Shown piece after piece: positions 28,546-29,473 of a stretch of 64,000 bases of DNA (the stretch's first letter is position 1; each line of letters begins with the position of its first letter). Position numbers and translations under genes: made by a program. The stretch is from Mucispirillum schaedleri ASF457 (GTDB lineage Bacteria; Chrysiogenota; Deferribacteres; Deferribacterales; Mucispirillaceae), in assembly GCF_000487995.2 (NCBI RefSeq), contig NZ_CP097562.1, positions 1,299,001 through 1,363,000 on the forward strand, given 5' to 3'. The notes below the pieces were generated by a model. The model was given only the letters and a program-made list of their open reading frames with translations, was not told the origin of the DNA and did not search any database.

Positions 28546-28572
28546 TTGACATTCCCCCCCCCATGATAAAAT
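28546..28572 (+). promoter_or_regulatory. Candidate phase-variable promoter with a C9 tract in the spacer
   Basis: TTGACA (28546-28551) and TAAAAT (28567-28572) are separated by TT, nine C (28554-28562) and ATGA. The spacer is 15 bases now; 11 C would give 17, the optimum. A run of nine C is very unlikely by chance in DNA this AT-rich. The layout matches known slip-strand promoters such as opc of Neisseria meningitidis, where a poly-C tract sits between -35 and -10. Confidence 0.7.
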
Positions 28573-28621
28573 GAGCCTGTCGACAAAAAGAAGCTTCTTG
28601 ATAAAATTAATGGAGTTTATC

Positions 28622-29473
28622 ATGAAAAAACTGTTTTTTTTAATACTGCCCCTTATTTTGCTGGGCTGCGGTGAAGATAATTCAAATGATAAAGTTTTAT
28701 CACCTTTAACACCAGCTTCTGTTATTAATGTTTACCCTGCTTCTTATGATTTTGTCACAGTAAAAGCTGGTGAAACTAAAAAAACTACATCTTTTACTGT
28801 TAATACTGACGGTTTTGTAACAAGCCGCTGTAATGTTGAGAGTGATATATTAGGTCTTAATATTGATGATGCAAAAAATACGCTAGAAACAATGTATCAA
28901 AATCAGATAACATCAGGTCAGTTTTCCCTTTCTTTTACTCCAATGTGTAAAGGAAATATAAGTGGTGAGCTTTTTATAGTTACAGATACTTTTGGTGGTG
29001 CAGATGTGAGAATACCAATTAATGCTGTTGTAACAGATGATGCAAATATATTACCTAAATGCAGCAGTGAAAACCCTGTTATTACTGTTACTTCATCACC
29101 TGAAAATATCATAAAAACTGGTGAAATTAAAGAATTAGGCACTCAAAAATATATTGATTTTGATACAGCTGGAACTAATAACATAACAATTACTGCAGTA
29201 TCAGACACTTATTTATCAGGTGGTTATTCAAGCACATCAACAGGCGGCACTTTTAATTCAACAGTTACACGGTGGGAATTAAAAGATAACAAGGTATCTG
29301 CAAAAGCTGAAATTATATTTAACCCTGTTTTATGTTCAGGTCCTGCATCTGATAGAATTATTGTAAATGGACTTGATGGAACAAGCAAATATACATACCT
29401 GTATATTACAGGAACAGGAACAGCAGCTGATGGCACAGCATGCAGCAATAGATATCCGCTTCAAACAAATTAA
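28622..29473 (+). CDS. Surface lipoprotein candidate, promoter likely phase-variable
   Basis: A 283-aa protein with a lipoprotein signal peptide ending LLGCG (lipidated Cys about residue 15), a Ser/Asp/Asn-rich linker, and two domains of alternating strands rich in Thr, Val and Gly that look immunoglobulin-like (about 35-130 and 145-265). Several paired cysteines could form disulfides. The ATG at 28622 is chosen because GGAG at 28612-28615 lies 6 bases upstream and the signal peptide then starts at residue 1; the frame extends upstream but without such signals. It sits alone between divergent tRNAs and a terminator. No family is recognised. Surface exposure is inferred from the lipobox and promoter type. 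Confidence 0.8.
   Translation: MKKLFFLILPLILLGCGEDNSNDKVLSPLTPASVINVYPASYDFVTVKAGETKKTTSFTVNTDGFVTSRCNVESDILGLNIDDAKNTLETMYQNQITSGQFSLSFTPMCKGNISGELFIVTDTFGGADVRIPINAVVTDDANILPKCSSENPVITVTSSPENIIKTGEIKELGTQKYIDFDTAGTNNITITAVSDTYLSGGYSSTSTGGTFNSTVTRWELKDNKVSAKAEIIFNPVLCSGPASDRIIVNGLDGTSKYTYLYITGTGTAADGTACSNRYPLQTN

What the first reader, a model, noticed from the sequence alone, without database searches (positions are those of the whole stretch)
28546..28640. C9 tract between -35 and -10 of a lipoprotein gene: likely phase variation
TTGACA and TAAAAT are separated by a spacer that is mostly nine C. Tract length changes by slippage would move the spacing between 15 (present) and the optimal 17. 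The tract stands out strongly in such AT-rich DNA, and the product is a putative surface lipoprotein. Known analogues are the opc and porA promoters of Neisseria. It would give on/off or graded display of this protein in a host-associated bacterium.
Basis: partly seen in the sequence, partly recalled or inferred. Interest (0 to 1): 0.8.

Follow-up and report, generated by a model that had tools for sequence, protein, structure and literature searches.

The report
Slippery-tract promoter switch of a lipoprotein
A run of nine C's sits inside the promoter of a lipoprotein gene of a gut bacterium (genus Mucispirillum), where gains or losses of single C's would turn expression up or down at random; the same switch recurs in several (up to about a dozen) promoters per genome across the genus, a known type of bacterial bet-hedging that I found undescribed for this group.

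Summary
In detail: TTGACA (28546-28551), TT, C9 (28554-28562), ATGA, TAAAAT (28567-28572), spacer 15, upstream of a lipobox protein (ATG 28622). It is not an isolated oddity. The genome (sister genomes are named Mucispirillum) holds 49 C8-C11 runs against about 2 expected, with a sharp mode at C9. Ten C-runs of 7 or more lie between TTGACA and a -10-like hexamer; about 0.04 would be expected by chance. The same promoter occurs in 9 of 10 genus genomes and one neighbouring genus, and in none of 49 other relatives. In 73 such promoters the flanks total 6 bases in 56, so C9/C10/C11 give spacers of 15/16/17, and 46 drive lipobox proteins. Two sister genomes are identical over about 200 flanking bases of one such promoter and differ only as C9 versus C7: direct evidence of slippage in this class. 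Orthologous coding tracts also differ between species and break or keep frame. Best explanation: porA-like transcriptional phase variation, with C9 a low-output register and C11 the high one. The mechanism is known; the organism, scale and shared cassette are apparently new. Not shown: variation at this exact locus, transcript level, surface exposure.

The parts
28546..28551 (+). -35 hexamer TTGACA
   Evidence: read directly; unchanged in all 37 genus sites found with up to 3 mismatches allowed anywhere
28554..28562 (+). C9 homopolymer tract in the promoter spacer (slippage site)
   Evidence: same position and length in the G002 orthologue; length alleles in sister promoters
28564..28566 (+). 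TGA, extended -10 element (TGn)
   Evidence: TGn is present in 51 of 73 C-tract promoters
28567..28572 (+). -10 hexamer TAAAAT; spacer to the -35 is 15 with C9
   Evidence: TATAAT or TAAAAT in 52 of 73 sister promoters
28573..28621 (+). predicted 5' leader, transcript start about 28578-28580 (inferred), with Shine-Dalgarno GGAG 28612-28615
   Evidence: inference from the promoter position; leader largely conserved in G002
28622..29473 (+). lipoprotein gene, 283 aa, MKKLFFLILPLILLGC...; no Pfam or NCBIfam family
   Evidence: ORF; no family hits; homologues at 76, 48 and 31% identity
28658..28669 (+). lipobox LLGC with the Cys to be lipidated (residue 16)
   Evidence: translation; Cys kept in the G002 and G001 orthologues

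Best explanation
This is a phase-variable promoter of the porA type. Strand slippage during replication adds or removes C's in the run between the -35 and the extended -10 of a lipoprotein gene. The flanks add 6 bases, so C9, C10 and C11 give spacers of 15, 16 and 17. C9, the commonest length, should be a low-output register and C11 the optimum, giving a mixed population with graded display of the lipoprotein. The locus is one member of a dispersed set of ten such promoters in this genome, mostly in front of lipoproteins, within a larger poly-C/G phasome of Mucispirillum. Shown: the anatomy, the genus-wide recurrence, and tract-length differences in sister promoters and in orthologous coding tracts. 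Inferred: slippage at this very locus, the effect of spacing on transcription here, and surface display.
For: Ten TTGACA-C7+-TANNNT promoters in the own genome against about 0.04 expected (own arithmetic), none for the reversed pattern. Present in 9/10 genus genomes plus one neighbouring genus, absent in 49 other relatives. 73 promoters: flanks total 6 in 56, tract C9 in 56 with a C7-C11 range, one at C11/spacer 17. One promoter in two sister genomes: identical over about 200 flanking bases, C9 versus C7. Within three mismatches 37 sites show no internal interruption of the run and no -35 change. Paralogous lipoprotein promoters carry C7, C8, C10 and C11 in this one genome. Coding tracts: of 14 Tat molybdoenzyme genes 6 are in frame and 8 out of frame, the latter with about 800 or more codons open in another frame; lengths G8, G9, G10. 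Lipobox in 46 of 73 products, against 1 of 48 window ORFs, that one being this gene. Precedents: porA 11G high, 10G medium, 9G low (PMC3639595); tp0126 optimal at 17, tprL tract 7-11 with mostly 9 (PMC7864442).
Against: No second strain of this species was available, so variation at this locus is not observed; its only tract-bearing orthologue is also C9 although aligned upstream DNA is only 72% identical. C9 is strikingly constant (56/73). The extended -10 may buffer the effect of spacing. MutS is present, so slippage may be slower than in organisms without mismatch repair. Tract lengths in short-read assemblies are error-prone (PMC4235727). No transcription data.
Confidence: 0.8

Rival explanations
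1. The C9 run is a fixed regulatory element (for example the binding site of a regulator shared by this lipoprotein set, or a spacer whose DNA shape suits a 15-bp gap), kept at nine by selection rather than varied.
For: C9 in 56/73 promoters and spacer 15 in 48/73; -35 and run essentially invariant within 37 genus sites; same C9 in the diverged orthologue.
Against: The same C9 mode holds for tracts outside promoters (29 of 40 in this genome), so it is not a promoter feature; lengths from C7 to C11 occur, including C9/C7 in otherwise identical promoters; no internal substitutions, as expected for a run kept pure by slippage or by selection for slippage; tprL, a tract shown to vary, is also mostly 9 G (PMC7864442).
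Confidence: 0.12
2. The tract slips but matters little: the extended -10, or another start site, drives the gene whatever the spacing.
For: TGn extended -10 in 51/73 promoters and here; the G001 orthologue at the same place has no tract.
Against: The perfect -35 and the near-constant flank total argue that spacing matters; the cassette is maintained across the genus.
Confidence: 0.06
3. Chance run or sequencing/assembly artefact.
For: Poly-C of eight or more is error-prone in short-read data (PMC4235727).
Against: About 100-fold excess of C9+ runs in the genome; the same cassette in ten separately assembled genomes; same tract in the orthologue.
Confidence: 0.02

Closest known systems
porA promoter of Neisseria meningitidis (poly-G between -35 and -10)
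   Same: Homopolymer in the spacer, outer-membrane product, 11/10/9 residues = high/intermediate/low (PMC3639595)
   Different: Single gene there; here a dispersed set of promoters with a shared cassette, C on the sense strand, and an extended -10
tp0126 and tpr promoters of Treponema pallidum
   Same: tp0126: poly-G between the boxes, best at spacer 17; tprL tract 7-11, mostly 9 (PMC7864442)
   Different: In tprL the tract overlaps the -10 region; proteins unrelated
opc promoter of N. meningitidis
   Same: Poly-C in a promoter that tunes expression of a surface protein
   Different: The poly-C encompasses the -35 region rather than lying between two intact boxes (PMC7864442)
vlp lipoprotein genes of Mycoplasma hyorhinis (from own knowledge, not tested)
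   Same: A set of lipoprotein genes, each with its own homopolymer in the promoter
   Different: Poly-A, clustered genes, unrelated phylum
Campylobacter and Helicobacter poly-G/C phasomes
   Same: Tens of C/G tracts per AT-rich genome, in glycosyltransferase, restriction and surface genes (NCTC11168 has 29 loci with seven or more, PMC4965091 abstract)
   Different: There mostly coding tracts; here a distinct promoter class aimed at lipoproteins, and Tat molybdoenzymes among coding targets

Membership tests
porA-type (promoter-spacer) phase-variable gene | Homopolymer lying between intact -35 and -10 boxes | tested here: met
porA-type (promoter-spacer) phase-variable gene | Observed tract lengths move the spacer through about 17 | tested here: met
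   Met for the class (C7-C11, spacers mainly 14-17); this allele is 15
porA-type (promoter-spacer) phase-variable gene | Tract length differs among otherwise identical alleles | tested here: inconclusive
   Met for a sister promoter (C9 vs C7); at this locus only one orthologue with a tract is available, also C9
porA-type (promoter-spacer) phase-variable gene | Transcript level follows tract length | not testable with these tools
   needs reporter or RNA data
porA-type (promoter-spacer) phase-variable gene | Surface-exposed product | tested here: inconclusive
   Lipobox present; exposure unknown; structure model too weak to use (mean pLDDT 35.5)
opc-type promoter | Poly-C occupies the -35 region, no separate intact -35 | tested here: not met
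   Intact TTGACA upstream of the tract

The most novel reading that the evidence does not exclude
Mucispirillum runs a two-tier poly-C/G phasome: a graded promoter tier that retunes a lipoprotein coat, with C9 as a maintained low register, and a frame-switched coding tier that includes several Tat-exported molybdopterin oxidoreductases, type I restriction specificity and LPS-type glycosyltransferases, so that a gut anaerobe bet-hedges its anaerobic respiration together with its surface.
Probability: 0.55. Interest if true: 0.72.

Novelty: new member of a known kind. Interest (0 to 1): 0.6.

Why it matters
Mucispirillum schaedleri is a core member of the mouse gut microbiota associated with inflammation (PMC5285517), and no account of phase variation in the genus was found in the papers searched. 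If right, a colony is a mixture of lipoprotein display states, so single-genome or single-clone comparisons mislead, and immune or phage selection could be read directly from tract lengths in ordinary sequencing data. The ten parallel promoters with lengths C7 to C11 in one genome also form a natural series for measuring how spacer length and an extended -10 set output.

Tried and rejected
The spacer preference of ordinary promoters could not be derived from perfect TTGACA/TATAAT pairs, because such pairs are no commoner overall than in the reversed control. Pfam, NCBIfam and PDB sequence searches of the lipoprotein gave nothing usable, and the AlphaFold model was too poor to search. A mismatch-repair defect was considered as a driver and rejected for this genome: MutS is present. 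The idea that C9 is a promoter-specific fixed element was weakened because the same mode holds for tracts outside promoters. The 300-aa ORF start at 28571 was rejected.

Full report
What is there. The window lies in a single-contig genome of 2,347,083 bases at 1,299,001-1,363,000. Sister genomes carrying the same promoters are named Mucispirillum, so the organism is a Mucispirillum, possibly M. schaedleri (the species is an inference; its own record is hidden by the tool). Between the trigger factor/tRNA block and lnt stands a 283-aa lipoprotein gene. Its promoter reads TTGACA-TT-CCCCCCCCC-ATGA-TAAAAT, spacer 15, exactly as reported.

More than chance. The window has no other C/G run of seven or more. 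The genome holds 49 runs of eight or more C (either strand): 6 C8, 33 C9, 8 C10, 2 C11, and only 5 of exactly seven. A geometric expectation from the window's own runs gives about 11 C7, 2 C8 and 0.4 of nine or more. The peak at nine cannot come from composition. Ten runs of seven or more sit between TTGACA and a TANNNT hexamer; from the base composition I estimate about 0.04 by chance (own arithmetic), and the reversed pattern gives none in this genome.

A genus-wide cassette. The same arrangement is found in 9 of 10 genomes of the genus (the tenth is 57% complete) and in one genome of a neighbouring genus (an uncultured Deferribacterales), but in none of the other 49 relatives. General C8+ run counts do not show this limit, so the promoter class is specific to this lineage among the relatives searched. 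In 73 distinct promoters the tract is C9 in 56, C10 in 7, C8 in 6, C7 in 3, C11 in 1; the spacer is 15 in 48, 16 in 11, 14 in 8, 17 in 1. The bases left and right of the tract vary (TT/ATGA, AAAT/GT, AAT/GTT, TTT/TGA ...) but sum to six in 56. That near-constant total means C9, C10, C11 correspond to spacers 15, 16, 17. The -10 is extended (TGn) in 51.

Targets. 46 of the 73 downstream products have a lipobox by a Prosite-like rule and 9 more have a hydrophobic N-terminus; in this window only 1 of 48 ORFs of 120 aa or more has a lipobox, and it is this gene. Other targets include a GtrII-like glucosyltransferase and a TRL-family lipoprotein.

Does the tract move? Three lines say yes. (a) In G003 and G004 one lipoprotein promoter is identical over about 200 flanking bases (the 150 before the -35 and all bases from the tract to the start codon) and differs only as C9 versus C7. 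(b) Paralogous lipoprotein promoters in this genome carry C7, C8, C10 and C11. (c) Coding tracts: Tat-exported molybdopterin oxidoreductases carry a G-tract just behind the signal; of 14 such genes in five genomes 6 are in frame and 8 out of frame, and the eight keep about 800 or more codons open in another frame; the orthologue that is G9 and in frame here is G8 and out of frame in G004. An hsdS-like gene, a family 2 glycosyltransferase and a lipoprotein are also broken at their tracts in this genome. (Notebook entry 3 gives 7/7 for the molybdoenzymes; the correct count is 6 in, 8 out.)

What speaks for constraint. Allowing three mismatches anywhere, 37 genus sites have 46 mismatches in total: by my tally none in the -35, one at the edge of the tract, 45 in the twelve flank and -10 positions. 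Runs are thus pure and the -35 perfect. The orthologue in G002 keeps C9 although aligned upstream DNA is only 72% identical. This could mean a fixed element, but the C9 mode is the same outside promoters (29 of 40 here), so it looks like the equilibrium of tract slippage; tprL of T. pallidum, shown to vary, is also mostly 9 G (PMC7864442).

Mechanism. In porA, 11, 10 and 9 G give high, medium and low expression (PMC3639595); in tp0126 expression is best at spacer 17; a review gives 17/18 as the optimum (PMC4235727). By analogy this promoter at C9 is in a low register and would rise at C10-C11; one sister promoter (genome 1,933,225) stands at C11 and spacer 17. The extended -10 makes graded output more likely than all-or-none. 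These steps are inference; nothing here measures transcription. The same review warns that the optimal tract length cannot be read from sequence alone (its fetA example is high at 9C), so which length is 'on' here must be measured.

Membership and novelty. The anatomy fits the porA type; the opc type is not met because the -35 is intact. I found no report of phase variation in Mucispirillum, within an open-access library only. The mechanism is known; the organism, the number of parallel promoters and the shared cassette appear new. Similar C9 promoters also turn up in many uncultured gut Clostridia with spacer 15-16, so the solution may be common in gut bacteria; that search fixed the pattern, so the spacer range there is partly set by the pattern itself.

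Limits. One genome per species, so no within-strain data; short-read assemblies miscount long C-runs (PMC4235727); first-ORF assignment and lipobox calls are rule-based; many of the 73 promoters share ancestry and are not independent; the lipoprotein's function is unknown.

Noticed in passing
genome 616-, 1014143+, 1070453+, 2270990- (L036, L044, L047, L076); L290-L318: Tat-signal molybdopterin oxidoreductase paralogues with a G8-G10 tract right behind the signal; 6 in frame and 8 out of frame among 14 genes in five genomes: apparent on/off switching of anaerobic respiratory enzymes.
   Followed up: partly
genome 680945 (L039), 2079265 (L072), 1050373 (L046): Type I restriction specificity gene, family 2 glycosyltransferase and a lipoprotein are out of frame at C8, C11 and C8 tracts; an MBOAT acyltransferase, a GT9 glycosyltransferase and a chemoreceptor-like gene carry tracts that leave a long frame open.
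   Followed up: partly
L112-L227 (genome contigs): Uncultured gut Clostridia, Treponema, Synergistales and Histophilus somni contigs carry TTGACA-C9+-TAWAAT promoters, spacer mostly 15-16, a number of them before lipoprotein-like genes: possibly a convergent, widespread switch.
   Followed up: partly
genome 1921193 (L069): Orphan copy of the 1933225 C-tract promoter: about 115 bp upstream nearly identical but the -10 and gene are gone, with a uvrB-like gene following; C10 against C11.
   Followed up: no
genome 863241 (L042): C10-tract promoter whose lipoprotein-like ORF has an early stop after MKKFLF, so this member looks broken.
   Followed up: no
window 28574-28599: Leader GCCTGTCGACAAAAAGAAGCTTCTT is conserved in the G002 orthologue, and a similar ACAAAAAAGAAGCTTCT recurs in the leader of another C-tract lipoprotein family (L247, L264, L281): a possible shared leader element.
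   Followed up: no
L080 (G006): At the same tig-lnt place G006 keeps only a short C-terminal remnant of the lipoprotein, and most genus genomes lack it, so the gene is accessory within the genus.
   Followed up: partly
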